DNA of 44,963 nucleotides from Bacilli bacterium (lineage in GTDB: Bacteria; Bacillota_I; Bacilli_A; RF39; UBA660), in assembly GCA_017512495.1 (NCBI GenBank), contig JAFWGF010000038.1:1-44963 (forward strand). Direction: 5' to 3'. Shown here one piece after another: positions 9,636-34,308 of the stretch. The stretch's first letter is position 1; the number at the start of each line of letters is the position of its first letter. Under the pieces are notes generated by a model. The model was not told the DNA's origin. It did no database searches and saw nothing but the letters and a program-made list of their open reading frames with translations. Position numbers and translations under genes: made by a program.

Positions 9636-9664
9636 ATTATATCAAACAAATATTCGTACATCAA
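9636..9664 (-). promoter_or_regulatory. Promoter of the ORF6N gene
   Basis: Minus-strand TTGATG (9659-9664), a 17-nt spacer and TATAAT (9636-9641). The -35 box overlaps the ftsW stop codon. Confidence 0.7.
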
Positions 9665-10746
9665 CCATTATTTCTAGAAATGTTTAAAATTATTCCAATA
9701 CTTGCCATAGATACTAATAAAGATGATCCTCCATACGAAAGAAATGGTAAAGTTACTCCAGTTACAGGTATTAAACCAACTACTACCATTAAATTCATAA
9801 TAGCTTGAAATATTAATTGAAAAGTAATCCCAAATACTAAATACTTTGAAAACAAATCATTTGAAGAAAGAGCTATTTTAATACATCGATAAAATATCAC
9901 TATAAATAATCCCACTACAATAATAGCTCCTACTATTCCAAATTCTTCAGCTATTACTGAAAAAATAAAATCTGTTTGAGGTTCTGGTAAGTAGAAATGT
10001 TTCTGAATTGAGTTTAAATAACTTGTTCCTAAAAGACCATGAGGTCCAATAGCAAACAAGCTTTGAATTATTTGAAATCCTGTACCTAATTGATCTTTCC
10101 ATGGATTAAGAAAAGAAGTAATTCTATTCATTCGATAAGGTGCAATTACAATTAAACCAATTATCCCAACTAAACCAATTACTCCTCCTCCTAAAAAGAA
10201 TTTTATATTTAAGCCACTAATAAACAGTAATGAAATAATAGCTAAAAACATAATTGTACCAGTACCTAAATCAGGTTGTAACATTATAAGTCCAAAGAAA
10301 ATTAAGACTATTATTAAAAGAGGTATTATTCCAATTATATTATTCTGTAAATAAGATTCATTACGGGAAAGATATTTACTACTAAAAATAATCAAGCCAA
10401 TTTTTGCAGCTTCACTAGGTTGTATTCCTAAAGAACCAATACCAAACCAGCTTCTACTTCCATTTCTAATACTACCTATACCTGGAATCAAAACTAATAT
10501 TAATAAAATTAAACAACTAAATAAAATAATATTAGCATACTCATAATAAAAATTATAATTAATTTTAGAAACAAATAACATTAATAGAACTCCAAGAACC
10601 AAAAATATTAATTGATATTTCAAATAGTGAAAACTATCATTAAACTTATATTCTGCCCAAATACTTGAAGCTGAATAAATCATCATAACTCCAAAAATAG
10701 ATAAAATTATGACACTGAATAATAATACTTTATCTATTTTTTTCAT
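9661..10746 (-). CDS. ftsW: SEDS-family peptidoglycan polymerase (FtsW/SpoVE type)
   Basis: 361 residues with about ten membrane segments. Diagnostic SEDS blocks are FGVMMIYSAS, NGSRSWFGIGSLGIQPSEAAKIGL, MLQPDLGTG, PEPQTDFIFSVIAEEFG and the C-terminal LPFLSYGGSSLL. FtsW/SpoVE proteins polymerise glycan strands from lipid II together with a class B PBP. In this window the possible partners are FtsI (32164-34308) and the interrupted SpoVD-like PBP (11870-21485). Whether this is the vegetative FtsW or the SpoVE counterpart cannot be decided from the sequence; its place after a spoVD-like gene and mraY recalls the Bacillus order spoVD-murE-mraY-murD-spoVE. A terminator separates it from mraY, and a TATAAT at 10764-10769 may start its own transcript. 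Confidence 0.93.
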   Translation of the reverse strand: MKKIDKVLLFSVIILSIFGVMMIYSASSIWAEYKFNDSFHYLKYQLIFLVLGVLLMLFVSKINYNFYYEYANIILFSCLILLILVLIPGIGSIRNGSRSWFGIGSLGIQPSEAAKIGLIIFSSKYLSRNESYLQNNIIGIIPLLIIVLIFFGLIMLQPDLGTGTIMFLAIISLLFISGLNIKFFLGGGVIGLVGIIGLIVIAPYRMNRITSFLNPWKDQLGTGFQIIQSLFAIGPHGLLGTSYLNSIQKHFYLPEPQTDFIFSVIAEEFGIVGAIIVVGLFIVIFYRCIKIALSSNDLFSKYLVFGITFQLIFQAIMNLMVVVGLIPVTGVTLPFLSYGGSSLLVSMASIGIILNISRNNG

Positions 10747-10778
10747 GTAATCACCTTAATAAAATTATATGATTTAGA

Positions 10779-10803
10779 TAAAAAAAAAGAACTTTCGTTC
10801 TTT
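10779..10803 (-). terminator. Rho-independent terminator of mraY
   Basis: AAAGAAC and GTTCTTT pair around a TTTC/GAAA loop, followed by a long T run on the minus strand. It overlaps the mraY stop codon at 10802. Confidence 0.88.
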
Positions 10804-11782
10804 ATACCCAAACTCCAAAAATAATTCCAGCCATTGATAAGATTAATCCTGCAACCCAAAATAATTTAACAATATCACTTTCAGACCAACCTAATTTTTC
10901 AAAGTGATGATGTAAGGGTGTCATTAAGAATAATTTTCTATGAAAAACTTGAACCCAAAATGTTTGAATAATTACAGATAAAGTTTCAATGACAAATACT
11001 GAGGCAACTACCAATAACGTCAACTCACGATGAGTAAGTATTGCGATAGCACCCATTACAGCACCTAAAGCAAGTGATCCAGTGTCTCCCATAAACACTT
11101 TAGCTGGATGTGTATTATAAATTAAGAATCCTATCAAACTACCAGTTAAAATCAAACTAAATATTCCAATATCTTCAAATCCAACTGATAATGATATAAG
11201 TGCAAATGCAATAAAAGCAATTGCGGATAAACCACCAGCCAATCCATCAAGACCATCAGTTAAATTAACCGCATTACTGGCACCAACTAAAATAAATAGA
11301 ATTGCTAAACCATATAACCAACCAAAATTTATATCGATATGTAGAGTTCCAACTACCCATGAAGTTTGACCTCCACTACGCATGTAAATATAAAAGAAAC
11401 CAATTGCAATTAAAACTTGCATAAATAATTTCTGATAAGTTGTTAATCCTTCATTATTACCTTTTCTAATTGATAGAAAGTCATCTAAAAATCCAATACA
11501 AGCATATCCTATAAAAACTAATAATACTATTCCCAAATTAGATGTATAAGATATTTTACCTGTAAATATTAATCCTAATGTTGCGACTACGGTTGGAATA
11601 ATAAATATTAAACCTCCCATAGTAGGAGTTCCTTCTTTCTTACGATGTGCATCTCCAACAAAAATGGAAATTTTTTGACCAATATGAAGTTTTTTTAAGA
11701 TTGGCAACATAAATAAACCTAACACAACAGATGATAAAAAACCAATCATTATGGCAAAAATAGCTTTCGTCAATAACAGCAT
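10802..11782 (-). CDS. mraY: Phospho-N-acetylmuramoyl-pentapeptide transferase
   Basis: 326 residues from ATG 11782, placed by CGGAG 8 nt upstream; a longer GTG frame starts at 11791. MraY attaches phospho-MurNAc-pentapeptide to undecaprenyl phosphate, giving lipid I at the inner face of the membrane. Family blocks are visible: HRKKEGTPTMGG, GFLDDF (substrate and metal aspartates), NLTDGLDGLAGG, FMGDTGSLALG and the HHHFE motif in MTPLHHHFEKLGW. About ten membrane segments. It has its own extended -10 promoter, so it need not depend on the split PBP gene upstream. Confidence 0.97.
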   Translation of the reverse strand: MLLLTKAIFAIMIGFLSSVVLGLFMLPILKKLHIGQKISIFVGDAHRKKEGTPTMGGLIFIIPTVVATLGLIFTGKISYTSNLGIVLLVFIGYACIGFLDDFLSIRKGNNEGLTTYQKLFMQVLIAIGFFYIYMRSGGQTSWVVGTLHIDINFGWLYGLAILFILVGASNAVNLTDGLDGLAGGLSAIAFIAFALISLSVGFEDIGIFSLILTGSLIGFLIYNTHPAKVFMGDTGSLALGAVMGAIAILTHRELTLLVVASVFVIETLSVIIQTFWVQVFHRKLFLMTPLHHHFEKLGWSESDIVKLFWVAGLILSMAGIIFGVWV

Positions 11783-11806
11783 ATTTTTCACTCCGTTTCT
11801 TAAATA

Positions 11807-11869: not shown

Positions 11870-12898
11870 TTATTTCATAAATAATCTAATTTTACTTCTA
11901 TCTTCAATAATAGTTCCTGATTTTGGAGATTGAAAAGATACAATATTTCCTGTTCCTGATTTAACAATTTCAAAATTTACTAGTAATTTTTTAGCTTCTT
12001 CATAACTCTTACCTACTACATTAGGAACTTCATAAGTAACTTTATCATTCCACTCCAAATCCTTTTTTATTTCATTTTCTTGTTTTTCTATACCTAAACT
12101 ATCAATAATATCTAATAATATTCTTCTTGCGATAGGAGTTGTTGTATAACTAGATAACATAGCTGTATTCTTAGGATTATCAATAGCTAAATAGAAAACA
12201 GCTTGGGGATCATTTGCTGGTACTACACTCATAAATGACATTATATAATTATTAGCTAAGTATTGACCATTTTCTACTTTTTGAGCAGTACCTGTTTTAC
12301 CTCCAATTCGATAGCCTTCAATATAAGCGCTTTTTCCTCCACCCTTCGCAACTACACTTTCCAATGCATATCGCATTGTTGCGGATGTCTTTCCACTAAT
12401 AACTTGTTTCTTGAAAACCTTATTATTCTCATATATAACATTATCAATATTATTACTAACACTCTTCACAATATAGGGCTTATATAAATATCCCCCATTT
12501 ACCACTGCACTAACTGCCATTACCTGTTGAATAGGTGTAACACTAATACCTTGTCCAAAAGCAGAAGTTGCGAGTTCTACATTGCCAACTCTATTAAGGG
12601 GAAATATAATTCCGTTACCTTCGCCATTCAAGTCAATTCCTGTTTTTGAACCAAATCCAAATTTATTTATGTAACTAAATAGTTTTTCTTTTCCTAAAAG
12701 TTGTCCTAACTTCACAAATCCTGGATTGCAAGAATTTTCAATGACTTGAAGAAAGGTTTGGTCACCGTGACCTCCAGCTTTCCAACATTTTAAAGTACTA
12801 CCATCAACTCTAACTTTACCTGAATCATAAAAATGATCCTTAAATATATCTACTACTCCCTCTTCAACGGAAGCAGCCATAGTTACTATTTTAAACGT
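11870..12898 (-). pseudogene. SpoVD/FtsI-like class B PBP, 3' part (transpeptidase and PASTA), separated by the element
   Basis: 342 residues open from the 14-bp repeat to the stop, without its own ribosome binding site or plausible start. It begins TFKIVTMAASVEEG, the continuation of a PBP SxxK block whose serine is encoded 7.7 kb away at 20622-20624. It holds the SxN motif (ENSCNPGF, fragment residue about 53), the KTG motif (GGKTGTAQ, about 203) and one C-terminal PASTA domain (VPNVVGKSYEEAKKLL to SKIRLFMK). Joined in frame to the 5' part it makes 630 residues, near the roughly 645 of Bacillus SpoVD, which also has one PASTA domain. No frameshift or stop has accumulated, so the gene looks kept intact. 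Translation in the inserted state is doubtful. Confidence 0.92.
12885..12898 (-). repeat. Right attachment-site core (attR), copy 1 of the 14-bp repeat
   Basis: Reads ACGTTTAAAATAGT on the minus strand, identical to 20608-20621; the bases next to it on both sides differ between the copies. It encodes T-F-K-I-V of the PBP SxxK block in one frame and the recombinase stop codon (12891-12893) in another. Confidence 0.92.
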
Positions 12899-14576
12899 TG
12901 TTACCCTTTTCAGTAAAAAAAACATTATAAGTAAACTTATTTGTTTGTCTATCTTTTCGTAATTTCTCAATACTAGAATAATTATTATTATAAATATCAT
13001 CACTATTAATTAATTTCATATAAATATCTAAATTAAGATAATGTCGATTATTATTAATTTTAGATATAATAATTTTAGAAACAAAATTTCTAATAAAATC
13101 TTCTAACAAGTCATTAGTCAATTGATTATTAATTTCATATTTAATTTTTTCTAAATTAAATGTATCTTTAATATTAATTTCTGTTAATATTTTTCTTTTT
13201 TTCTTTTCTAATTCTTTAATCTCTTTTTCGTATTTTATAAATTGCCCTTTTAATTGTTCTCTCTTTATTTCTCCTGAAAAAACTAAATCTAACAGCATAT
13301 TCTTTTTACTTTCTATATTTTTTAATTGTTCCTCAACAGTTTGAAGCTCTATATCATATTGCTTAGTTTTATCTACATCAGCATATATCTTACATAGATC
13401 ATTATTGATTAGCTCTTTATTTGTAATAGTTTTTCTCATGATATTTAAAAATATATTATATAAATCTACTTCAGCAATAATCGGAGAACTACAAAGAGCC
13501 AAACTATGTTGCAGGTAAAGTCCACAACACCAAACAGCTCTTTTCTTATTTCTACTATTATAGGTTCTTTGAAAAATTGTGTTATCATCTTTACAATATA
13601 TTTTTGATGATAAAGCATATTTAACACCACCTACACAACAGTTATTGTTCTTATACGATAAAGATCTTTTCTTCAATATTTCATTAGCTTTTAACCATAA
13701 TTCTTCAGAAACAATTGCTGGTACTCGTCCATCTTCATTTTTATAAATAATTTGTTCTTCTACGCTATTCTTCTTTCTTTTTTTAGTACGATAATCAAGT
13801 ACCTCATAAGTTCTAGCTCTATAAAATCCTTTATATTTAGGATTTTCAATCATTCTTTTTAAAGAGTTTTTATCATATAATTTACCCTTTTTATTTAAAT
13901 AACCTTCTTCTCCTAATTGCCTTGCTAATTTAGATAAACCATATTCACCAGTAGCATATAATTCAAATAATTTCTTAATCATTTGAGCTTCTTCTGGTAC
14001 TACTATTAATTTACAATTATCTTTACGATAGCCCGTAATATTTGATGAACCTAATACATGACCCTTTTCTATTGCTTTACGATATCCAAATTTGACACTA
14101 GTTGATATTTTTTTAGATTCTTCTTGAGCAATGTTAAATAAAATATTTAGCGTTAATTCAGAATTAAAATCAAAAGTATTAAGAGCTTGATTTTCAAAAA
14201 AAACTCCTACGCCAGCATCTTTTAATTCTCTAATATAGTGAATACTATCTTCTAAATCTCTCGCAAATCTAGAGACATCTTTAGTAACAATTAAATCAAA
14301 TTTATTAGTTTTAGCATCTCTTATCATTTTCATAAACTCTTGTCTTTTATCAGCTCTTGTACCAGTAACACCTTCTTCTACATAGCCAGGCACATACTTC
14401 CATTTAGGTTTACTTTTAATATAATTATCATAATAATCTAATTGATTTTCTAATGAATTAAGTTGAATATCACTATCAGTAGAAACTCGACAATAAAAAG
14501 TAACACGCAAAGGAATATTATAAATTTTTTCACCAGACATTATTTGTCTTGATATTTCATTAAAAATGATATACAC
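12891..14576 (-). CDS. Large serine recombinase (site-specific integrase/excisionase)
   Basis: 561 residues from GTG 14576. The resolvase domain (about 24-170) has the nucleophile in FYCRVSTDSD (Ser32) and the catalytic SRFARD. The Recombinase domain follows (about 190-300, LARQLGEEGYLNKKGK and PKYKGFYRAR), then a zinc-ribbon region with Cys residues (about 315-370) and a long charged coiled coil (about 410-470), the layout of phiC31/TnpX/SpoIVCA-type enzymes. It should join and separate the att sites at the element ends. Start doubtful: AGGAGG lies 1 nt from the GTG, while ATG 14540 (MSGEKIYN) has no good site. The gene follows a 42-residue ORF and has a terminator ahead, so it is transcribed apart from the cargo. 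Confidence 0.95.
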   Translation of the reverse strand: MYIIFNEISRQIMSGEKIYNIPLRVTFYCRVSTDSDIQLNSLENQLDYYDNYIKSKPKWKYVPGYVEEGVTGTRADKRQEFMKMIRDAKTNKFDLIVTKDVSRFARDLEDSIHYIRELKDAGVGVFFENQALNTFDFNSELTLNILFNIAQEESKKISTSVKFGYRKAIEKGHVLGSSNITGYRKDNCKLIVVPEEAQMIKKLFELYATGEYGLSKLARQLGEEGYLNKKGKLYDKNSLKRMIENPKYKGFYRARTYEVLDYRTKKRKKNSVEEQIIYKNEDGRVPAIVSEELWLKANEILKKRSLSYKNNNCCVGGVKYALSSKIYCKDDNTIFQRTYNSRNKKRAVWCCGLYLQHSLALCSSPIIAEVDLYNIFLNIMRKTITNKELINNDLCKIYADVDKTKQYDIELQTVEEQLKNIESKKNMLLDLVFSGEIKREQLKGQFIKYEKEIKELEKKKRKILTEINIKDTFNLEKIKYEINNQLTNDLLEDFIRNFVSKIIISKINNNRHYLNLDIYMKLINSDDIYNNNYSSIEKLRKDRQTNKFTYNVFFTEKGNNV

Positions 14577-14584
14577 TCCTCCTA

Positions 14585-14713
14585 TTATTTATTTAACTTC
14601 TTTAAAAGTTTATCATTTACTATTAAATAAGTTTCCTCATCAATCACTCTTTTATTATATAAATTCTTATTAATAAGTATTTCGATATTAATCATAAATT
14701 TATCATTCATCAT
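14585..14713 (-). CDS. 42-residue protein encoded upstream of the recombinase
   Basis: ATG 14713 (or 14710) to TAA 14585, after a GGTGAT ribosome binding site. The product starts MMNDKFMINIEILINKNLYN and ends in lysine-rich KLLKKLNK, with a predicted short helical hairpin around RVIDEETYLIV. The pattern 'lyn-krvIdeetYl.vndkLLkkL' resembles SHOCT-like tails found in small proteins beside recombinases. It stops 8 nt before the recombinase GTG, so the two are probably cotranslated; a directionality or regulatory factor role is possible but unproven. A candidate promoter lies between it and the cargo terminator. Confidence 0.6.
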   Translation of the reverse strand: MMNDKFMINIEILINKNLYNKRVIDEETYLIVNDKLLKKLNK

Positions 14714-14720
14714 ATCACCA

Positions 14721-14748
14721 CTAAATATTATGAATTTTATTTTTTAAT
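14721..14748 (-). promoter_or_regulatory. Candidate promoter of the recombinase operon (resembles a sigma-E-type site)
   Basis: On the minus strand TCATATT, 13 nt, CATAATAT, ending just upstream of the 42-residue ORF. The first block fits the Bacillus sigma-E -35 pattern (KMATATT); the second fits its -10 (CATACANT) at 5 of 7 fixed positions, and the spacer is about 1 nt short. A vegetative reading, TTCATA-17-TAATAT, is also possible. In such AT-rich DNA, chance is a serious alternative. Confidence 0.3.
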
Positions 14749-14751
14749 ATG

Positions 14752-14775
14752 AAAAAAACGTATTTATATACGTTT
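14752..14775 (-). terminator. Rho-independent terminator of the element's cargo operon
   Basis: Minus-strand AAACGTAT and ATACGTTT pair perfectly around 4 nt, followed by T residues. The stop codon of the LicC-like gene lies in the loop. It isolates the cargo operon from the recombinase operon. Confidence 0.9.
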
Positions 14776-15828
14776 CTTAATTATATTATCTTCTTTATTT
14801 TCATGGGAATAAACATGCTTTTCATGATTAATTTCAAACGAAAAAGAATATCTATCTTCATTAGCTTCAATTGGTTTAATATTAGTAATATTCTCTTCTT
14901 TCACACCATAATAATCTGCAATTTCTTTTAAAGTATTACTATGAGAATCACTGATATATGAAGAATCAAATTTACGTAATTCATCTAATGAATCAAATTC
15001 AAATATGACATCAGAAGGATACTCATGTATTTTCATTAAAGGCAATTTATTTAAATTATCTTTTAAAACATCTTCCCATAATACCTTTTTATATTGACCT
15101 TCTTGAGAAAAATCTTCCTCGAGTAGTTTTAAAATACTTTTAGAAAAATCTTTATTCCAATAAGCATGTCCTAACATTATAAAACCTTCAGTACCAGATT
15201 TAGAAATACTAGAAATATATCCTTGATTATTTGGCTCCATATACCATTCGTTAGTTTCTTCTGTTACTTTAATAGCTGAATAAAATGATTCATAAACATA
15301 TTCCTCAAAAGGATTCTTACTAAAGTAATTATCTGAAGAACAAACATAAGAATTTTTTAAATAATCTTTTGCCATAAAAAGTGTATATGTATTATTAAAT
15401 TCATTATATTTTGGATTATAAACCAATTTAATTCCAGTATATTTATCTTTCAAATACATAAATTCTTCATGTTTATATCCTAAAACAATAATTATGTTTT
15501 CAATTCCAGATGACTGCAATTGTTCTATTTGTCTTTCTATTAATATTTCTCCTTTAACATTAAGTAATCCTTTTGGTTTTTCTAAAGATAAGGGGACAAA
15601 TCTTGAAGATAAACCCGCAGCCATAATTACAGCATTATCTACCTTGAATGGTTCTAATTGTTTTAAACCCATATCAGTTATTACATCTTCTTTGATCCAG
15701 TTTTTATCATAAAAAACACTTATTTGATTACTAATTATATCTTCTGATATATCACCTAAATAAGAAAAGCACTTTTTTACACCATACTTTTTTATAGCTA
15801 ATAATATTTTAAATTCTAATTCATTCAT
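14764..15828 (-). CDS. LicC-like CTP:phosphocholine cytidylyltransferase with an N-terminal winged-helix domain
   Basis: 354 residues. Residues 1-60 look like a small helix-turn-helix domain (KILLAIKKYGVKKC to ITDMGLKQLEPF). The nucleotidyltransferase domain follows: VIMAAGLSSRF at 67-77 and EKPKGLLNVKGEILIERQI from 83 bind the nucleotide, and CSSDNYF gives the metal-binding aspartate. Enzymes of this type make CDP-choline from CTP and phosphocholine for decoration of surface polymers or lipids. The neighbouring choline kinase-like gene 10 nt upstream supports phosphocholine over a sugar-1-phosphate substrate. Last gene of the cargo operon. The exact substrate is inferred. Confidence 0.82.
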   Translation of the reverse strand: MNELEFKILLAIKKYGVKKCFSYLGDISEDIISNQISVFYDKNWIKEDVITDMGLKQLEPFKVDNAVIMAAGLSSRFVPLSLEKPKGLLNVKGEILIERQIEQLQSSGIENIIIVLGYKHEEFMYLKDKYTGIKLVYNPKYNEFNNTYTLFMAKDYLKNSYVCSSDNYFSKNPFEEYVYESFYSAIKVTEETNEWYMEPNNQGYISSISKSGTEGFIMLGHAYWNKDFSKSILKLLEEDFSQEGQYKKVLWEDVLKDNLNKLPLMKIHEYPSDVIFEFDSLDELRKFDSSYISDSHSNTLKEIADYYGVKEENITNIKPIEANEDRYSFSFEINHEKHVYSHENKEDNIIKKRI

Positions 15829-15838
15829 ACACTCAGTC

Positions 15839-16753
15839 CTATTTTATTTTTTTATATTGTTTAATGTTATCATGAAGTCTTTCATAACGACCACTTGCAT
15901 ATTCTCTCATAAAGTCTCCATCAAATGGTACACGTGCTAATCCCCAAAGAGTCCATAAATAATCAATCAATATTTTTTCAATAATAAAATGTTTTCTTTC
16001 ATCATCAGTTATATTTCTTTGATAATAAGATTTTAATAATATATTATCTTCAACATCAGAATAATTAGCTTCAATAGAAAGACATGATAAGTCCCAAACA
16101 GCATCATTCATACCAGAAAATTCCCAATCAATTAAATATAACCTATCATCTTCATCTAAAACCCAATTATCTACTAATGAATCATTATGACAAGGAACAA
16201 TATTTATCTCAGATTTATCTTGTAATCCCTTATATAAATCAAAAACATAACTACGAGTATCAGAATAATCATCATATAGCGAAACTTGATAATCAGAAAT
16301 TATCTTTTCATATAAAAGTGCTTTTTCAAAAACATCAAATATAACACCTGTATCAACTAATGAATTATGTAATTTAGAAAAAATATTAGCTGCTTGCTTA
16401 ATAATATCTTCTCTTTTCATAACATCTTCATTCATTGGTTGTGGATTCTTAATAAACCTCATTATCTTATAACCTTTTTCATCAAAGTATAGAAGTTCTG
16501 AATCAATTCCTAGTTTACAAGCTAATTCAGTACTCTTTTTTTCATCGATACGATTAATCATTTCATCAGTACCTTCACCAGGAATACGAACTAAAAACTC
16601 TTCTCCATTTTCTAAAGTAACTTTATAAGAATGATTCATCATTCCACCTAATCTTTTTATGTCAACAAATTCACTAATTCCAAAAACTTTATTTAATAAT
16701 TTCTTTATTTCAGCAATATCTTCTTTTTCAATTTCTCTAACTAATTCTGCCAT
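15839..16753 (-). CDS. LicA-like choline kinase (APH/choline kinase family)
   Basis: 304 residues of the aminoglycoside phosphotransferase/choline kinase fold. RLGGMMNHSYKVTLENGEEFLVRIPG (about 34-59) is the nucleotide loop and lysine-strand region; VPCHNDSLVDNWVL (about 186) is the Brenner-type catalytic loop; LIDWEFSGMNDAVWDLS (about 207) holds the metal-binding DWE/DxE. It should phosphorylate choline, or possibly ethanolamine or a related alcohol, with ATP in the cytoplasm, feeding the LicC-like enzyme next to it. GGGGAGAT precedes the ATG. No LicB choline importer or LicD transferase is found in the window. Confidence 0.85.
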   Translation of the reverse strand: MAELVREIEKEDIAEIKKLLNKVFGISEFVDIKRLGGMMNHSYKVTLENGEEFLVRIPGEGTDEMINRIDEKKSTELACKLGIDSELLYFDEKGYKIMRFIKNPQPMNEDVMKREDIIKQAANIFSKLHNSLVDTGVIFDVFEKALLYEKIISDYQVSLYDDYSDTRSYVFDLYKGLQDKSEINIVPCHNDSLVDNWVLDEDDRLYLIDWEFSGMNDAVWDLSCLSIEANYSDVEDNILLKSYYQRNITDDERKHFIIEKILIDYLWTLWGLARVPFDGDFMREYASGRYERLHDNIKQYKKIK

Positions 16754-16767
16754 TCTATCTCCCCTAA

Positions 16768-16944
16768 CTACTTAATCGAAATATCATCTGATTCTTTTTC
16801 CTTATTTTTATCTTTTATTTTTACTTTCTTTTTAAACTTCTTTATAAAAACTCCAACAATTGCTCCTAAAGCAACAACTATTCCTGTGATAACTTGAATT
16901 GTATAAGTCATAACTGAAGGATCAATATATAATACATTAATCAT
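16768..16944 (-). CDS. 58-residue single-pass membrane protein
   Basis: ATG 16944 to TAG 16768, overlapping the end of the YidC-TagF gene by 8 nt (ATGATTAA), with an AGGAGG ribosome binding site inside that gene. The product starts MINVLYIDPSVMTYTIQVIT, then a hydrophobic run (GIVVALGAIVGVFI, about residues 21-34), then a highly basic tail (KKFKKKVKIKDKNKEK). Topology is probably N-out with the basic tail in the cytoplasm. Tight coupling suggests a subunit or stabiliser of the membrane assembly made by its neighbours; no homologue is recognised. Confidence 0.75.
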   Translation of the reverse strand: MINVLYIDPSVMTYTIQVITGIVVALGAIVGVFIKKFKKKVKIKDKNKEKESDDISIK

Positions 16945-18904
16945 GTTTCCTCCTTTTAATTTTCTCCTGAATAGAATTAACTAAATACTTAGCTGCAACT
17001 TCACTACTCGTACCTATATTATATACATTCTCTTCAAAAAAGTCTTCTATCTTTTTTGAATACTTTGTCTTATTTTTAACCATATCTTTCGCAACTTTAT
17101 CAATAGTATTTAATTTGTCTAAATCAATACTTTTACCAATAATATCTCTAGAATATAATTCAAATATTTCAATACCTAATTCTTGATAATCTTTATTTAA
17201 TACACGCATTGGTGTATTAATAGATATTACTGGTCTCTTAGTTATAAAAGCATATTCATAACTTATCCCTGACCAATCAGTAATCAATATTTCAGAGTCT
17301 AAAATATTACCAATAGTAGAATAATCATCTTGAATAATAACATTTTTATTATTATAATACTTGTCTTTTAATTGTTTCATTTTATTCTTGTTATGCTTTA
17401 CATAATATGGATGAGGTCTAACTATAAGTTTAAAATTCTTCTTTAAAATATTTATTATTTCATCAATACAAGTTTCCATAATATTATCTTTTTGCCATGA
17501 TGGAGCAATTATAATAGTTTTATTGTTTTTAAATTTTTCTTCTATTAACATTTCATCCAATAAAGGATAACCAACATCAACTACTTTTCTTTTTAAATTA
17601 TAAACTTTATTTCCCTCTGTTATTTCTTTTCTTTGATATTTACCAAAAGCAAATATAGTATCAAAGTGATCTAATGATCCCTTCTTACAAGAACAATTAT
17701 AGTTACCTATTCCATGATGAATAAAAATATATTCAATATCTTTTCTTACATAACTCCTTTTTATATGATATTTATCAAGATCAGGAACAGTCATTAAAAC
17801 TATATCACTATCCATTTTCATCATCAAAGAAATAAGTTTTTTTTCACCAATATAATAAGCTTTAAACTGTTCTGTATTTTCTTTTAAAACAGGATCAGAA
17901 TAATCACTAGTAATATAATGAATAATAAGATTAGAATGTTCTAGTAAATAATTAATTATTCCTCGATAATATTTATAATAACCACTATCTTCAGCATAAA
18001 TAACTAAATGCTTATTATCTATTTTAAAAAATCTTTTATAATCAACCTTTTCTTGTTTAATAACATCTTTACTTCTATCTTCAACAGTTAAAGTTGCTAA
18101 TTCTGCATTAGATTTTTCTAATTCAGAATAATCAATATACTTAGTAGGTTTCATAACTGTATTAAGTAAGAATAAAACTACCATAGCAAGTAAATTACTA
18201 AAAATCCAATATAAAGCTACTCCTGCTGGTACATAAAGTCCTAGATACAAAGATAAGGAAACAGAAATTAACATAGTAATAATTTTATATCTTGTACTTT
18301 GTTCTCTTTGTAAAACATTTTTCTTCATATCATATAAACAATAAATTAATGAAGAAAGAGCCGCTAAAAGAGGAAATAAATAGTTATGAAGATTAACAGG
18401 TATCAAAGATAAATCATAATTAAAAACCTCTAAATCAATTTTTTCTAATTCTTTATTATTAATTTCATGATTCTTTACTTTTCTTAATACTTCTAATTCT
18501 TGATAATTAGATTCTTCAGACACTTCTGCTACTAATAAATCTCTAGTCTTAGAATCTACATTAGAAATATAGGTAATTGGATTATTAACAATTTGAACAA
18601 AACAAATTAAGATAACAAGTTGAATAATTAAAGGTATTACTGATAAAAAAGGATTATATTTTTCCTCTTTATACAATTTACTTTCAAGTTCTGTTATTTT
18701 ATCATCATCACCATAATAATCGATTTTTATTCTATTTATCTTAGGTCTTAAAGAAACTAATTTAATGGAATTCTTTTGAACTAGCAAAGATACCGGAAAT
18801 AAAATAATTTTAGAAACAATCGTGAAGAAAAGAATTGCCAAACCATAATTATGAAACAGATTATAAAAGAACTTCATAAAGATGCTTAAAAAACTAGTAA
18901 TCAT
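16937..18904 (-). CDS. Fusion of a YidC/Oxa1-like membrane domain with a TagF-like CDP-glycerol glycerophosphotransferase domain
   Basis: 655 residues. Residues 1 to about 250 form a YidC/Oxa1 core: SIKLVSLRPKINRIK, LYKEEKYNPFLSVIPLIIQL, NPITYIS, then further membrane segments ending VPAGVALYWIFSNLLAMV. Residues about 290-655 are a GT-B-like TagF/CDP-glycerol glycerophosphotransferase domain: IFIHHGIGNYN (about 395), IIAPSWQKDNIME, LIVRPHPYYV and ITDWSGISYEYAFITKRPVI (about 543). Known YidC proteins insert membrane proteins and TagF enzymes polymerise or transfer alcohol-phosphates; here the YidC part more likely serves as a membrane platform or a lipid or protein handler for the transferase. 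It follows the LtaS-like gene by 14 nt and overlaps the 58-residue ORF. Confidence 0.9.
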   Translation of the reverse strand: MITSFLSIFMKFFYNLFHNYGLAILFFTIVSKIILFPVSLLVQKNSIKLVSLRPKINRIKIDYYGDDDKITELESKLYKEEKYNPFLSVIPLIIQLVILICFVQIVNNPITYISNVDSKTRDLLVAEVSEESNYQELEVLRKVKNHEINNKELEKIDLEVFNYDLSLIPVNLHNYLFPLLAALSSLIYCLYDMKKNVLQREQSTRYKIITMLISVSLSLYLGLYVPAGVALYWIFSNLLAMVVLFLLNTVMKPTKYIDYSELEKSNAELATLTVEDRSKDVIKQEKVDYKRFFKIDNKHLVIYAEDSGYYKYYRGIINYLLEHSNLIIHYITSDYSDPVLKENTEQFKAYYIGEKKLISLMMKMDSDIVLMTVPDLDKYHIKRSYVRKDIEYIFIHHGIGNYNCSCKKGSLDHFDTIFAFGKYQRKEITEGNKVYNLKRKVVDVGYPLLDEMLIEEKFKNNKTIIIAPSWQKDNIMETCIDEIINILKKNFKLIVRPHPYYVKHNKNKMKQLKDKYYNNKNVIIQDDYSTIGNILDSEILITDWSGISYEYAFITKRPVISINTPMRVLNKDYQELGIEIFELYSRDIIGKSIDLDKLNTIDKVAKDMVKNKTKYSKKIEDFFEENVYNIGTSSEVAAKYLVNSIQEKIKRRKHD

Positions 18905-18918
18905 TTTATTTCTCCTTC

Positions 18919-20544
18919 CTATTTTTTTAGATCATATATATTCCCTGTAGATTTAATTGTTTTTTCATTCCAAGCCTCTCCTTGTTGAACAACTTCAACC
19001 ATATGACTTTCATTTCCATACACATAAAGTAACATTTTTCTGTCTCGATTCGGATCAACATCAGCAAACAATTCACTACTTTGCTTTTCATTAAGTAAGT
19101 CAAAATAAACACTTTTTAAATCAGTATAAGAAACAGGTATATCTGATCTTTCCAAACCATGATGTTCATTAATTCCTTTAATAAATAAAATTGGATTTTG
19201 TCTACCTTCATAACCGTTTCCTAGAGCATAACCATGATCAGCCATGATAATAATATTAGAATTATCATAGACATTACTTTCTTTTAATTGTTTTAAGAAA
19301 GCATCAATTATCAAAATACTAGATTCTAATTTATCATAATAAGTTCCATTATTAGCACCAATATTCTCTACTTTGTTATTTAAATCAAATGGTACATGAG
19401 CTCCTTCTATATGAATAAATTTAAACATATTAGTATCAGTTGTATTTAATTTTCCTTTACGAAACTCATCATACGCTATTATATCATTCCAATCATATAA
19501 TCCTTCATTATTGTATACTACTTTATTTTTAAATCTAATAGTTTCTATCTTTGAAAGTCTTTTTAAAGGAAAAGGAAGATATTTAAATAAAATATACTTT
19601 TTTTGCTCACGTAAATAAATAAAAGAATCTATACTTTTATTTGTATTTTTTAAATTAGCAGTTACTTTATAACCTTCATCTTCCCAAATAAGATCATTTG
19701 TATATAGATTAATAGCATAATTATTATCTTTTAGTGTTTTAAATAAATAAGAATTACTATAAGCTTTATTACTATAGTCAGAGAATGAAGTTTTGTTCTT
19801 ATTCCATTTGTTTGTCAGAATAAAAGGAATAGAATCCCTTGTATAAATATAAGTTGAAGTCGTATCTTTATAAAAAGTAAAATCATCAAATACATTTTCA
19901 TGCTTGTTTTTTTGCATAATTTCATCAAACATAACTGCATCAACTGCATCTAACATTAAAATAATAAAGTTACGATTAGTTGAAGCAACTTGATAATTCT
20001 CAGTTGTTGATAAAACATATTTTTTTTGAAACAAAGAATTCTTCATCACAACAATATTTCCAATAATAGCCATACTTAAAATCAAAGAAACAAAAATACA
20101 AGCATAAACAGTTAATTTATAAATATTATCGAAACCAATTTTTTTAGGTAAAAATATACCAATAGCTATAATAACCAGCCATAAAGTAATAGAAACTATA
20201 TTAGGTATTACATATTTGCTCCAAATAACTTTAGAACCATCTATCCATGGTAGTTCAATATTAAAAAAATTACCTTGTAAAAACAATCCCAAAAAAATAA
20301 GAGCAATCACAAGAAAAACAATGTCATAGATTTTTTTGTTTTTAACAAAACGATATAAAATTGTAAATACTAAGCAAAAGAAAAGAAAGCACCCTAAAAA
20401 AGATAAAATAATCGTCGGAAAAATATCATAAATATCAAATGTAAATTCATCTAAATTTGTAACATACAATGCGAATGGCTCATATAAAAAAAGTAGAAAA
20501 GAAAGAATAAAACTTAATCCATATCCAAATATTAATTTTTTCAT
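18919..20544 (-). CDS. LtaS-like sulfatase-superfamily membrane enzyme (phosphoalcohol transferase or phosphatase)
   Basis: 541 residues from ATG 20544; GGAAGTGG lies 6 nt upstream, and a longer TTG frame begins at 20559. About five membrane segments occupy residues 1-160, followed by an alkaline-phosphatase/sulfatase domain: FIILMLDAVDAVMF (first metal ligand, about 195), KDTTSTYIYTRDSIPF (likely catalytic Thr, about 227-230), FIHIEGAHVPF and IIIMADHGYALGNG (DHG, about 434). The layout matches LtaS and phosphoethanolamine transferases, which work on the outer face of the membrane. First gene of the cargo operon, 49 nt inside the left repeat, with an extended -10 promoter. The substrate is unknown. 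Confidence 0.82.
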   Translation of the reverse strand: MKKLIFGYGLSFILSFLLFLYEPFALYVTNLDEFTFDIYDIFPTIILSFLGCFLFFCLVFTILYRFVKNKKIYDIVFLVIALIFLGLFLQGNFFNIELPWIDGSKVIWSKYVIPNIVSITLWLVIIAIGIFLPKKIGFDNIYKLTVYACIFVSLILSMAIIGNIVVMKNSLFQKKYVLSTTENYQVASTNRNFIILMLDAVDAVMFDEIMQKNKHENVFDDFTFYKDTTSTYIYTRDSIPFILTNKWNKNKTSFSDYSNKAYSNSYLFKTLKDNNYAINLYTNDLIWEDEGYKVTANLKNTNKSIDSFIYLREQKKYILFKYLPFPLKRLSKIETIRFKNKVVYNNEGLYDWNDIIAYDEFRKGKLNTTDTNMFKFIHIEGAHVPFDLNNKVENIGANNGTYYDKLESSILIIDAFLKQLKESNVYDNSNIIIMADHGYALGNGYEGRQNPILFIKGINEHHGLERSDIPVSYTDLKSVYFDLLNEKQSSELFADVDPNRDRKMLLYVYGNESHMVEVVQQGEAWNEKTIKSTGNIYDLKK

Positions 20545-20576
20545 ATTTACCACTTCCAAATTTTATATCCAGAACA

Positions 20577-20585
20577 ATTATATCA
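20577..20585 (-). promoter_or_regulatory. Extended -10 promoter of the element's cargo operon
   Basis: TGATATAAT on the minus strand between the left repeat and the LtaS-like start. The -35 region would lie in the attachment-site arm (a TTGTAC is present, but 20 nt away). It lies inside the element and so travels with it. Confidence 0.6.
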
Positions 20586-20588
20586 TAT

Positions 20589-21485
20589 TTACATAAAAAC
20601 CGGTACAACTATTTTAAACGTACTACCCGGTTCATAAGATGCCCAGATAGGCAAATTTCTACTTAATACTTCTGAGCTATATTTAGAATAATTATTAGGA
20701 TCATAACTAGGTAAAGAACTCATTCCTAATATTTCACCTGTTTTAGGCTTAACCACAACTGCTAATGCCATATCTGGATTAAACATATCTTTAATATTAT
20801 TCATTTCTCTTTCCAAAGATTTCTGTATCTTAATATCAATAGTTAAATTAATATTCATTCCTGAAGTTGGAGCTACATAGATATCATTTAGATTAATTCT
20901 ATTTCCATGAGCATCACTAAAATACTTAATAGTACCATCTTCACCTTTTAAATACTTATCATATTCTAATTCTAAACCTGATAAGCCTTGATTATCTATA
21001 CCAACATAGCCCAAAGCATGAGCAAGTAATTTACCATTAGGATAATATCTTTTAGACTCTTTTACTAAATAAACCCCATCATAATGTAAATTATTAATCT
21101 TCTCTGCAATTTCATAAGACAATCTTCTACCTTCAGGATGAACTCTTTCAATTGATGTTTTTTTATAAACATGTTTTCTTATGTCACTATTTAGTATTCT
21201 AGATAAATCTCTAGTAACCCTTTCCTTATCTTTAATTTGATTCGGTACTAACACTAACGAAGCAGTAGTTAAATTATCTGCTAAAACAACACCATTTCTA
21301 TCTAATATTTTTCCTCTATCAGCTTTTAAAACTAAATTTCTACTCCATAGATCATTTGCCAAAGAAGATAATTTATTATGTTGAAATAATTCAATATAAA
21401 GTACTTTTAATACTACTAATAATAACATAGATACTAATAATATAAATAATATCTTTATTCTCTTATTAATATTTCTTAAAAACAT
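20589..21485 (-). pseudogene. SpoVD/FtsI-like class B PBP, 5' part, truncated by the element
   Basis: 298 residues from ATG 21485 (AGAGGTGAATT upstream). A single membrane anchor (about 12-32) is followed by the class B PBP dimerisation domain: LVLKADRGKILDRNGVVLADN, KRYYPNGKLLAHALGYVG, NQGLSGLELEYDKYLKGEDG, then ILGMSSLPSYDPNNY. The reading ends in YEPGSTFKIV followed by five element-encoded residues (VPVFM) and a stop at 20589. Ser288 is the catalytic serine, so cutting occurs immediately after the nucleophile codon. The product may be made as a stable, inactive anchor domain. Upstream is the LysR gene and its terminator, with no clear promoter for this gene. Confidence 0.93.
20608..20621 (-). 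repeat. Left attachment-site core (attL), copy 2 of the 14-bp repeat
   Basis: ACGTTTAAAATAGT on the minus strand. It follows GGTAGT of the PBP side and precedes TGTACCGG of the element side. Confidence 0.92.
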
Positions 21486-21510
21486 AATTCACCTCTACAA
21501 AAAGATATGA

Positions 21511-32163: not shown

Positions 32164-34308
32164 TTATTGATATTTAGGAGCTAAATTCAAAGTTATCTCC
32201 ATTCCTTCAGTTATACCAGTTCCGGGAGCAACAGATTGTTCAACAACATATCCTACTCCATTTAAATTAACTTTTAAACTTAATTTTTGTAAAACATCTT
32301 TACTAACTTTAGAAGATAATCCTACAACACTAGGTACTGTAATAGCATTATCATTAGTAATCAAATATATTATATCATTATTTGTAATAATATTACCACT
32401 ATTTGGAGATTGATTTATAACTTTATTACCATTTCCAATAATTTGATATCTTATACCATTACTATCTAACTCTGCTTTTACTTTATCAATATTTTTATTT
32501 GTATAACTATTTACTTTATAATCTTTTATTTCAATAGTAGTATTAGTACTACTATCACTATTACCATAATATTTAGAAATATTACCAACTATTTCTTTAA
32601 CAGCATTACTAATTGGTTTTTGACTTCCACCACTTGGTTTTTTTACAGATGCATAAATAATAACTTGCGGATTACTCTTTGGATAAATACCTGAGAATGA
32701 AGAAATAATATCTTCCTTTCCACTCAAATACCCACCATTTTTTTCATTAGCTACTTGAGCTGTTCCTGTCTTACCAATAAGCTCTCCACTATCAATTCGA
32801 TAACCTACACCTGTATTACCACTTCCATTAACACAGTCACTCATTAATTGATACATTTTTTGAACAGTACCAGTAGAAGCAACTCTTTCTATTTCTTTTC
32901 TCTTATTTTCTAAAATTACTTCTTTTGTTTCAGAATCAACTATTTTAGAAACAATAAATGGTTCTAATAACATTCCATCATTAGTTAATGGTGTCATTGC
33001 TTTAACATTTTGAATTGGGGTTGTAGTTATACCTTGGCCAAATCCAGCATTATATATTTCTGTTTCATATCTAAAATCTAGTTTACCTTTTGATTCATTT
33101 GGTAATTCAATACCAGTCTTCTTTCCAAATCCTAGTTTTTTAAAATATTGTTTCAACATAATACTAGACATATGTCTATTAATTAAGTTGATAACTCCTA
33201 CGTTACTACTCATAGCATAACCTCGATCAAATGAAATAGTTCCCCAACCATTACGATCCCAGTCACCTATTTCTGTACCATCACTAGTTTTATATACACC
33301 AGAACGATATGTTTCTGCTCCATTATATACACCATTTTCCATTGCGGCCATATAAGTAAATGTTTTCATTGTACTTCCAGGTTCATATGGATATGATGTT
33401 AACATATTTAAATAACTAGTTAAATCTCTTTTATTAGGATCAAAAGAAGGATTACTACTAGTACCTAAAACAGCACCAGTTTTAGCATCTAAAACAGTTA
33501 TAGTAAACCATTCCCAGCCATATCCTTTACTAGAATTATTAATTGCTTGCTCAACAAAGAATTGAATATTAGAATCAATCGTCAAATAAACATCTTTTCC
33601 TTGAATAGCTTCTTTTCTAACTACCGGAGTATCAGCTATTTTATACCCCTTTAAGTCTTTTTGATAAGTAATATAGCCATCTTCTCCTCTTAATAATTTA
33701 TCAAAATGCTTTTCAATACCTAATTCACCAACAATAGTACTATCTTCATCATTAGTATTAGTAGTATAGCCTATTGTATAAGAAGCAAAATCACCTTTAG
33801 GATAATATCTTTTAAAACTTTCTATAAAATCTAGTCCTGGTAAATTTAAATCTTCAATCTGCTTCTTTTTTAATTCATTAAGACCTTTACCTTTAATCCC
33901 GAATTCAGTTTGATAAACATTTTCTTTACTTAAATATTTTAATACTTCTTCTCTATCCATTTCTAATACTGGAGCCAGTTTATTTGCAGTATCTTCTTTA
34001 TCTACTACATGTTGAGGTCTTTTTTTATTAGTAGTTCTCTTAGGATCTAAATAAGCAATTAATTTATAAGAAGCTACATTTTGAGCTAAAACATCTCCAT
34101 TAACTGAATATATAGAACCTCTACTAGCAGATATTACATCAGTTCTAGTAGTTCTATTACTAGCAAGTGTTTTTAAATCAACACCATCTATTTCTTTAGA
34201 TAAACCTAATTGGATGATTCTCCCAATCATTAGGCAAAATAAAAGAAGAGAACCTAATATCACCAATTTTGAATACTTAATATTATTTTTTCTCCTCTTT
34301 TTAGTCAA
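32164..34308 (-). CDS. ftsI: Class B penicillin-binding protein, division transpeptidase (PBP2B/FtsI) with two PASTA domains
   Basis: 714 residues from TTG 34308 (AGGATGTG upstream). An N-terminal membrane anchor is followed by the dimerisation domain (RGSIYSVNGDVLAQNVASY) and the transpeptidase: SxxK in EPGSTMKTFTYM (about 311-316), SxN in AMSSNVGV (about 366) and KTG in IGKTGTAQ (about 512). Two PASTA domains end the protein (about 590-650 and 653-712, the latter VPSVVGLSSKVSKDVLQKL). It cross-links septal peptidoglycan. Encoded after ftsL in the dcw order, so it is the vegetative division PBP and remains intact while the second PBP is interrupted. Confidence 0.95.
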   Translation of the reverse strand: MTKKRRKNNIKYSKLVILGSLLLFCLMIGRIIQLGLSKEIDGVDLKTLASNRTTRTDVISASRGSIYSVNGDVLAQNVASYKLIAYLDPKRTTNKKRPQHVVDKEDTANKLAPVLEMDREEVLKYLSKENVYQTEFGIKGKGLNELKKKQIEDLNLPGLDFIESFKRYYPKGDFASYTIGYTTNTNDEDSTIVGELGIEKHFDKLLRGEDGYITYQKDLKGYKIADTPVVRKEAIQGKDVYLTIDSNIQFFVEQAINNSSKGYGWEWFTITVLDAKTGAVLGTSSNPSFDPNKRDLTSYLNMLTSYPYEPGSTMKTFTYMAAMENGVYNGAETYRSGVYKTSDGTEIGDWDRNGWGTISFDRGYAMSSNVGVINLINRHMSSIMLKQYFKKLGFGKKTGIELPNESKGKLDFRYETEIYNAGFGQGITTTPIQNVKAMTPLTNDGMLLEPFIVSKIVDSETKEVILENKRKEIERVASTGTVQKMYQLMSDCVNGSGNTGVGYRIDSGELIGKTGTAQVANEKNGGYLSGKEDIISSFSGIYPKSNPQVIIYASVKKPSGGSQKPISNAVKEIVGNISKYYGNSDSSTNTTIEIKDYKVNSYTNKNIDKVKAELDSNGIRYQIIGNGNKVINQSPNSGNIITNNDIIYLITNDNAITVPSVVGLSSKVSKDVLQKLSLKVNLNGVGYVVEQSVAPGTGITEGMEITLNLAPKYQ

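What the first reader, a model, noticed from the sequence alone, without database searches (positions are those of the whole stretch)
12885..20621. A 7.7-kb serine-recombinase element interrupts a penicillin-binding protein inside its catalytic SxxK codons, in a way that excision would repair exactly
The sequence shows a 14-bp direct repeat at both ends (12885-12898, 20608-20621), a serine recombinase beside the right end, and PBP coding sequence on both outer sides that rejoins in frame to GSTFKIVTMAAS. The serine codon is left on one side and the lysine codon (in the repeat) is kept on both. The rest of the gene on each side is undamaged over 288 and 342 codons, which argues for recent insertion or for conservation because excision occurs. 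Intervening elements in sigK, spsM, comK and nifD are known to do this; I know of none in a PBP active-site motif. Whether excision happens here is inference.
Basis: partly seen in the sequence, partly recalled or inferred. Interest (0 to 1): 0.93.

Follow-up and report, generated by a model that had tools for sequence, protein, structure and literature searches.

The report
Spore enzyme gene split by DNA elements
A gene for a spore-wall enzyme (SpoVD) is cut inside its active-site codons by a 7.7-kb mobile DNA element that is likely spliced out precisely when the bacterium makes spores, and related species carry such elements at three fixed places in the same gene, sometimes two at once.

Summary
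A 7.7-kb element (12899-20607) with an exact 14-bp core at both ends sits inside the SxxK lysine codon of a penicillin-binding protein gene. The gene is spoVD, the sporulation PBP; a separate intact PBP2X/FtsI-like gene lies at 32164-34308. The element has a large serine recombinase (LSR), a tiny ORF upstream of it (candidate directionality factor), and four surface-polymer-type cargo genes. In 10 of 28 genus genomes with a SpoIVA match, spoVD is interrupted (7) or ends at an att site (3), at one or more of three sites: A (STFK), B (NSCN), C (TPIQ|Q). Sites A and C have their own recombinase clades. In one record (SIG202) A and C are both occupied, so spoVD lies in three pieces. In two species sharing a site-C element, the gene pieces stayed under purifying selection. 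The tiny ORF lies under a promoter-like site resembling those of spoIVA, spoVD and spoVE. In two genomes, contigs sharing exactly 99 or 141 nt break at an att site, which suggests that empty and occupied sites coexist. Most likely these are skin/gin-like intervening elements excised in the mother cell. Excision itself was not observed.

The parts
20608..21485 (-). spoVD 5' part (codons 1 to the SxxK lysine); its frame runs on into the element and stops at 20589
   Evidence: TIGR02214 E 1.2e-75, profile 5-293; 77% identity to G015
20608..20621 (-). att core, gene 5' side (attL)
12899..20607 (-). intervening element, site A of spoVD
   Evidence: homology breakpoints and repeat
12885..12898 (-). 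att core, gene 3' side (attR)
11870..12901 (-). spoVD 3' part (transpeptidase remainder and PASTA)
   Evidence: TIGR02214 E 1.1e-124, profile 290-634; PF00905, PF03793
12891..14576 (-). large serine recombinase (561 aa); stop codon inside the core
   Evidence: PF00239, PF07508, PF13408; site-A clade 100/100
14585..14713 (-). 42-aa ORF directly upstream of the recombinase, candidate recombination directionality factor
   Evidence: a small ORF of similar pattern lies upstream of the other site-A and site-C recombinases looked at; coordinates; no confident Pfam hit
14725..14732 (-). predicted sporulation-type -10 (CATAATAT) of the small ORF
   Evidence: score 5.2; one non-sporulation gene start of 234 scores higher; 47 positions of the whole window reach this score on either strand
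14764..15828 (-). cargo: nucleotidyltransferase (LicC-like by inference)
   Evidence: PF00483/PF12804
15839..16753 (-). cargo: choline/ethanolamine kinase family protein
   Evidence: PF01633 E 4e-19
16937..18904 (-). cargo: YidC-type membrane domain fused to CDP-glycerol glycerophosphotransferase
   Evidence: PF02096, PF04464
18919..20544 (-). cargo: sulfatase-family membrane protein
   Evidence: PF00884 E 5e-9; no NCBIfam hit
21502..21509 (-). sporulation-type -10 of spoVD (CATATCTT)
   Evidence: score 19.0, second best of the window; this site is in the training set
10802..11791 (-). mraY, downstream neighbour of spoVD
   Evidence: ORF; identity named from its sequence and dcw context, no family search
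9661..10746 (-). spoVE/ftsW-type gene; -10 at 10764-10771 is the best promoter hit of the window
   Evidence: TIGR02615 spoVE 415.7 bits (cut-off 448.8); TIGR02614 ftsW 395 bits (cut-off 337.5); promoter score 21.1, not in training
32164..34308 (-). separate intact PBP (PBP2X/FtsI-like)
   Evidence: best NCBIfam hit strep_PBP2X 372.7 bits, below its cut-off of 1050; E 5.4e-29 to the spoVD 3' part
40671..41357 (-). sigK, uninterrupted
   Evidence: NF004471 SigK 296 bits (cut-off 252); TIGR02846 278.6 (cut-off 298.65)

Best explanation
A 7.7-kb serine-recombinase element splits the sporulation gene spoVD inside its active-site lysine codon, and it is predicted to be excised in the mother cell during sporulation, which would rebuild the gene. 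Shown by sequence: the split, the exact 14-bp core, the dyad-symmetric att sites, the recombinase, the tiny ORF upstream of it, and the in-frame reconstruction. Inferred: (1) the mother-cell sigma factor (sigmaE type) transcribes the tiny-ORF/recombinase operon together with spoVD and spoVE; (2) the tiny protein switches the recombinase from integration to excision; (3) attL x attR recombination in the terminal mother cell rebuilds spoVD and releases a circle; (4) SpoVD then makes spore cortex peptidoglycan; (5) the forespore chromosome keeps the element, so it is inherited. Catalytic-motif codons are hit because a site-specific recombinase needs a conserved target in a gene the vegetative cell does not use.
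For: Identity: both parts match spoVD_pbp, and the intact G015 orthologue passes the curated cut-off (691.5 vs 688). Host: G000 carries Spo0A over cut-off, full-length SpoIVA over cut-off, SigK and a SigE-like factor below its cut-off. Genus: close SpoVD matches in 27 of 28 genomes with a SpoIVA match and in 0 of 11 without, save a 39-residue 51% stub at a contig edge of G009, 60% complete. Recurrence among the 28: 16 intact, 7 interrupted with an adjacent LSR, 3 with a gene end or contig end at an att site, 1 frameshifted, 1 not found. Five named MAGs, selected by their LSR, have the 5' part ending at site A (5 of 5) and SpoIVA over cut-off (5 of 5). Site-A and site-C recombinases are separate 100/100 groups. 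Selection: G028 vs G004, both with the site-C element, pN/pS 0.176 (348 codons) and 0.10 (216 codons), with LSR dS 0.38 and gene dS 0.26-0.35, as expected for shared descent of the interrupted state. Promoter: tiny-ORF upstreams of spoVD elements against other gene starts, Mann-Whitney P 4e-8 (11 rows) or 2e-6 (8 rows), rows being related. Coexisting forms: G006 contigs share exactly 99 nt starting at site C; G018 contigs share exactly 141 nt ending at site B. Small elements: 3.7 kb in G028 (one ATPase gene, tiny ORF, LSR) and 3.1 kb in G004 (a 157-aa ORF, tiny ORF, LSR).
Against: No excised junction or circle of this element is in the G000 assembly. Whether these bacteria sporulate is unknown. 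The tiny ORF has no confident family match. The promoter model was trained on unverified promoters; 47 positions of the window, both strands, reach the tiny ORF's score of 5.2, nine of them in the element, so the case rests on its place. G033 site B (-0.7), G060 (1.5), SIG202 (0.9 and 1.0) and the dac elements (1.3, -7.2) score weakly. G015, the nearest relative, is intact, so the window's own insertion could be recent, and its gene halves show only that they have not decayed (pN/pS 0.30 and 0.14 to G015; intact pairs 0.24-0.29). Contig branching could reflect mixed strains rather than excision. SpoIVA in G002, G004 and G019 is only a fragment below the cut-off.
Confidence: 0.8

Rival explanations
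1. A site-specific mobile element has simply inactivated spoVD in a lineage that no longer needs it; the conserved codon is only a convenient target and excision is incidental.
For: 11 of 39 genus genomes have neither a SpoIVA match nor a close SpoVD, so sporulation seems to be lost in places. Site-A elements in G063 and G064 are 99.99% identical over 6.7 kb while the host gene parts are 81% identical, so elements move between species. G019 has a frameshifted spoVD without an element.
Against: The 10 genus genomes with an occupied or broken site all have a SpoIVA match, fragmentary in G002 and G004; interrupted pieces in G028/G004 evolve at pN/pS 0.10-0.18; where SpoIVA is missing spoVD is absent rather than interrupted; small elements keep the recombination module.
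Confidence: 0.12
2. Excision and reinsertion are stochastic in growing cells, a phase-variation switch on sporulation ability rather than a developmental step.
For: Integrated and empty paths appear to coexist in assemblies of G006 and G018. The C. botulinum yin element was found in both forms in a pure culture (PMC10747680, abstract and passages).
Against: The tiny ORF/LSR operon has a promoter-like site of the spoIVA/spoVD/spoVE type in several elements; known relatives are timed in the mother cell (PMC5025042, PMC4191935, passages).
Confidence: 0.1
3. The split is an assembly or binning chimera.
For: The genome is a draft in 51 contigs; several relatives break inside the gene.
Against: Both flanks keep the genus synteny (LysR gene upstream; mraY downstream); the breakpoints share an exact core at a dyad centre; independent records show the same codon.
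Confidence: 0.02

Closest known systems
gin element in gerE of Bacillus cereus ATCC10987 (PMC5595907; abstract and passages seen)
   Same: Element without phage genes inside a mother-cell sporulation gene, short direct core (9 bp), serine recombinase plus a directionality factor, in-frame reconstruction
   Different: gin is 28.6 kb with three recombinases and one target site; here one LSR with an adjacent tiny ORF, target spoVD, three sites in the gene across species
skin elements in sigK of B. subtilis and C. difficile (PMC5025042; abstract and passages seen)
   Same: LSR; in C. difficile also a small protein (CD1234) under sigmaE control that directs excision in the mother cell
   Different: Here sigK is uninterrupted and spoVD is split; the sigmaE link is only predicted
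SPbeta/spsM, vfbin/spoVFB, vrin/spoVR, yin/yabG (PMC4191935, PMC10747680; passages seen)
   Same: Intervening element within a sporulation gene; yin also has a 14-bp repeat
   Different: Those are prophages or prophage-like; this cargo has no phage gene by Pfam and the target is a PBP
Heterocyst interruption elements in nifD, nifH, hupL (PMC4874684; passages seen)
   Same: Several element variants at fixed positions in one gene, up to four in one nifD; removal in a differentiating cell type
   Different: Cyanobacteria and nitrogen fixation; another host group and developmental programme

Membership tests
Sporulation gene-intervening elements (skin, gin, vfbin, yin, SPbeta) | Inserted within the coding sequence of a sporulation gene, both parts collinear | tested here: met
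   TIGR02214 on both parts and on the intact orthologue; coordinates
Sporulation gene-intervening elements (skin, gin, vfbin, yin, SPbeta) | Site-specific recombinase encoded in the element | tested here: met
   LSR domains
Sporulation gene-intervening elements (skin, gin, vfbin, yin, SPbeta) | Direct-repeat core whose recombination restores the reading frame | tested here: met
   in silico
Sporulation gene-intervening elements (skin, gin, vfbin, yin, SPbeta) | Directionality factor under a sporulation sigma factor | tested here: inconclusive
   tiny ORF recurs, promoter-like site; function untested
Sporulation gene-intervening elements (skin, gin, vfbin, yin, SPbeta) | Excision during sporulation | not testable with these tools
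   no reads or cultures
Sporulation gene-intervening elements (skin, gin, vfbin, yin, SPbeta) | Host forms spores | tested here: inconclusive
   Spo0A, SigK, SpoIVA and a SigE-like factor present; phenotype unknown
Prophage | Phage structural or replication genes in the element | tested here: not met
   recombinase and four surface-polymer-type genes by Pfam
Integrative conjugative element | Conjugation genes | tested here: not met
   none among the window element's five large ORFs; a coupling-protein-like ORF, named from its sequence, lies upstream of the site-B recombinase of G033

The most novel reading that the evidence does not exclude
spoVD is a shared multi-slot DNA-splicing platform: at least two, probably three, catalytic-motif codons each have a dedicated recombinase lineage, elements jump between species into the same codon with swappable cargo, and in species with two occupied slots the mother cell must excise both elements to assemble one cortex enzyme, so spore formation is gated by DNA splicing of a cell-wall enzyme rather than of a sigma factor.
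Probability: 0.55. Interest if true: 0.85.

Novelty: new variant of a known kind. Interest (0 to 1): 0.74.

Why it matters
It would extend programmed DNA excision in sporulation, known from genes such as sigK, gerE, spsM, spoVFB, spoVR and yabG, to a peptidoglycan enzyme at its active site, in a genus where it recurs in about a third (10 of 28) of the genomes with a SpoIVA match. Three fixed sites, recombinase groups specific to the site, species with and without each element, and 3-kb elements make the long-standing question (selfish passenger or regulatory checkpoint?) testable by comparison. The LSR/tiny-ORF modules with defined att sites are also candidate genome-engineering recombinases.

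Tried and rejected
Considered and set aside: generic vegetative PBP (a separate PBP2X/FtsI-like gene is intact; spoVD_pbp is the best match); prophage or ICE for the window element (no such genes); mere chance repeat. SHOCT for the tiny ORF: only E 0.065, not claimed.

Led nowhere or weak: the IMG/VR scan with the window recombinase found no relative; with a site-C recombinase it found two at 40-45% identity (read). G018 contig C57 (an LSR like that of the spoIVA element) shares no sequence at E 1e-3 with the first 3000 of 8468 bases of the contig holding intact spoIVA, so coexistence at spoIVA is not shown. The 5' parts of G033 and G059 spoVD were not found. Of the paper searches I saw listings, and passages of seven papers (PMC5553647 included); none showed a natural element in spoVD, spoIVA or a carboxypeptidase. 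They did show a laboratory ICEBs1 insertion in B. subtilis spoVD with no detectable excision (PMC3715440, passages). Only open-licence papers are held, so absence from print is not established.

Dropped rows and slips: in the promoter test L083 (score 16.4; interrupted gene unknown) and the near-copies L076/L077 were left out of the 11 rows; two of 42 training upstreams lacked CATA and were dropped. In one search the window's own spoVD stayed by mistake among 235 'non-sporulation' starts; the count 1 of 234 excludes it, the Mann-Whitney values include it. The 8-row set still holds three members of one site-C clade. In the same gene set the spoVD starts of G060 and G032 scored only 1.8 and -12.1. 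The tree holds 20 recombinases; G064 was left out as a near-copy of G063 (1 difference in 1731 nt).
Full report
WHAT IS THERE. The window is a whole contig (C42) of a 1.37-Mb draft genome, 86% complete. On the minus strand a PBP gene of the dcw cluster is split: 5' part 20608-21485, 3' part 11870-12901, with mraY and an spoVE/ftsW-type gene downstream. The parts match spoVD_pbp (TIGR02214) at positions 5-293 and 290-634 of 636 with 255 and 417 bits; the intact orthologue of the nearest relative, G015, scores 691.5 against a cut-off of 688. The contig also carries a separate PBP2X/FtsI-like PBP (32164-34308) and an uninterrupted sigK (40671-41357). So the interrupted gene is the sporulation PBP, SpoVD, whose role in cortex synthesis is recalled from B. 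subtilis.

THE JUNCTION. The exact 14-bp core occurs twice in the genome, at the two breakpoints. Joining the flanks at the core gives ..GGT AGT ACG TTT AAA ATA GTA ACT ATG.. (GSTFKIVTM), like intact relatives. The best dyad axis of both the predicted empty site and the predicted circle junction is the centre of the core, inside the lysine codon; the circle junction has 15 of 26 arm positions paired, a value reached by 0.43% of window centres. That is the usual layout of large-serine-recombinase sites (established knowledge). The recombinase gene's stop codon lies in the core.

THE MODULE AND CARGO. The LSR (PF00239, PF07508, PF13408) is preceded by a 42-aa ORF (14585-14713). A tiny ORF of similar pattern precedes the other site-A and site-C recombinases looked at; it has no confident family, and I propose it as the directionality factor. 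Cargo is a nucleotidyltransferase, a choline-kinase-type protein, a YidC/glycerophosphotransferase fusion and a sulfatase-family membrane protein, probably for surface-polymer decoration (inference). Other elements have other cargo: a DUF4143 ATPase in G028, plasmid- or phage-like ORFs in L075 and a coupling-protein-like ORF in G033; the last two are named from sequence only.

THE GENE IS HIT AGAIN AND AGAIN, AT THREE PLACES. Of 39 genus genomes searched, 28 have a SpoIVA match, 25 of them over the family cut-off; G002, G004 and G019 hold fragments. Among these 28: 16 have spoVD as one open frame (G005, G007, G012-G015, G017, G020-G022, G024-G026, G030, G031, G061); 7 have an LSR directly beside a spoVD break (G000 at site A; G002, G004, G028, G059, G060 at site C; G033 at site B); 3 have a gene end or contig end at an att site without a neighbouring LSR seen (G032 A and C; G018 B; G006 C); G019 has a frameshift without an element; in G011 none was found. 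G004 also breaks at site B. Among the 11 genomes without SpoIVA none has a close SpoVD match, save a 39-residue, 51% stub at a contig edge of G009, which is 60% complete and may be a spore former with gaps. A scan of named genomes with the window LSR gave five MAGs (four uncultured Bacilli BRZ bins and SIG202); in all five the 5' part of spoVD ends at site A, and all five have SpoIVA over cut-off. In SIG202 (L078) the middle piece is followed by a site-C LSR and the last piece: one gene in three parts with two elements. In L075 the middle piece ends at site C, and in L076 and L077 at or next to site B. Site A is the SxxK motif, site B the SxN motif (NSCN), site C lies at TPIQ|Q; motif names are recalled.

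ONE RECOMBINASE LINEAGE PER CODON. In a 20-row tree site-A recombinases (5) and site-C recombinases (6) each form one group with 100/100 support; site B has one row. Site-A elements of G063 and G064 are 99.99% identical over 6.7 kb and 98.4% over a further 3.9 kb, their recombinase genes differ at 1 of 1731 nt, while their spoVD 5' parts are 81% identical (dS 1.19). So the element moved recently into the same codon of another species.

SELECTION ON THE BROKEN GENE. G028 and G004 share a site-C element whose recombinase dS (0.38) is like that of the host gene (0.26 and 0.35), as expected if the interrupted state was inherited. Over that span the pieces changed with pN/pS 0.176 (348 codons) and 0.10 (216 codons). 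For the window the pieces are undamaged: pN/pS to G015 is 0.30 and 0.14, against 0.24-0.29 for intact pairs, but part of that time precedes the insertion. The G028 and G004 elements are only 3.7 and 3.1 kb: one other gene each, the tiny ORF and the LSR, which fits a module kept for excision.

TIMING. A 28-nt matrix from 22 spoIVA and 18 spoVD upstreams (T-rich spacer, CATA-type -10) ranks the spoVE-type gene, not used in training, first in the window and spoVD second. Of 234 other gene starts one scores above the window's tiny ORF (5.2). Over the whole window, both strands, 47 positions reach that score, nine of them in the element, so the argument rests on place. Tiny-ORF upstreams score 6.0-13.4 in four site-C elements and 9.1 in two site-A MAGs, but -0.7 in G033, 1.5 in G060, 0.9 and 1.0 in SIG202, 1.9 at spoIVA and 1.3 and -7.2 in the dac elements. 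The 11 spoVD-element values exceed other genes with P 4e-8, or 2e-6 with 8 rows; the rows are related. In C. difficile the directionality factor CD1234 is under sigmaE and SpoIIID (PMC5025042, passages). The promoter type here is predicted, not measured.

EXCISED FORMS. The G000 assembly holds only the integrated form. In G006 two contigs overlap by exactly 99 nt starting at site C, and in G018 by exactly 141 nt ending at site B. Overlaps of such lengths are what a branched k-mer assembly graph leaves (recalled; the assemblers are not known to me), so a second path seems to start exactly at the att site: coexisting empty and occupied sites, either from excision or from mixed strains.

WIDER PATTERN. 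spoIVA is interrupted near codon 120 beside an LSR in G033; in G024 the 3' part of spoIVA is preceded by the end of a like recombinase at a contig end. A D-Ala-D-Ala carboxypeptidase (Peptidase_S11) is interrupted by its SxxK region (motif recalled) in G026 and G004, and at a contig end in G028; close copies occur in 25 of the 28 genomes with SpoIVA and in G009.

COMPARISON AND NOVELTY. It works like skin, gin, vfbin, vrin, SPbeta/spsM and yin (PMC4191935, PMC5595907, PMC10747680, PMC5025042; passages) and, in having several slots per gene, like cyanobacterial nifD elements (PMC4874684, passages). Searches of the held papers (listings, with passages of seven papers) showed me no natural element in spoVD, spoIVA or a PBP; only open-licence papers are held. 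I rate it a new variant of a known kind: new target, catalytic-motif sites, several site-specific recombinase lineages in one gene, and a gene in three pieces.

VERDICT. Observation confirmed; interpretation supported with the key addition that the gene is spoVD and the phenomenon is recurrent. The unproved steps are excision, its timing and the role of the tiny ORF.

Noticed in passing
L085 (G033:C16) and L092 (G024:C41), with L094 and L093: spoIVA is also interrupted near codon 120; in G033 a distinct serine recombinase lies directly beside its 3' part, in G024 the end of a like one at a contig end.
   Followed up: partly
L080 (G026:C28), L089 (G004:C36), L081 (G028:C32 end): A D-Ala-D-Ala carboxypeptidase gene with nearly the same distribution as SpoIVA is interrupted by its SxxK region by another serine-recombinase element.
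   Followed up: partly
L143 (IMG/VR contig): A relative recombinase is followed by the 3' part of what reads like a D-Ala-D-Ala carboxypeptidase, beside helicase-like and second-recombinase ORFs.
   Followed up: no
genus genomes G001, G003, G008, G009, G010, G016, G023, G027, G029, G034, G035: These 11 of 39 have no SpoIVA match and no close SpoVD, suggesting loss of sporulation inside the genus (G009 is only 60% complete and may be an exception).
   Followed up: partly
window 16937-18904: YidC-type membrane domain fused to CDP-glycerol glycerophosphotransferase; 4064 of 7997 scored candidates match, and many of the 120 listed carry both Pfam domains, so it is a widespread family.
   Followed up: partly
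L032 (G019:C23): spoVD is frameshifted by a short deletion, with no element; pseudogene or assembly error.
   Followed up: no
L076 and L077: Near-identical site-A elements in two species whose host gene parts are 81% identical: recent transfer into the same codon.
   Followed up: yes
window 25560-29198: 1212-aa protein with a repeated NNPNLEDTIVLDGTP-type motif, in the spoVD neighbourhood.
   Followed up: no
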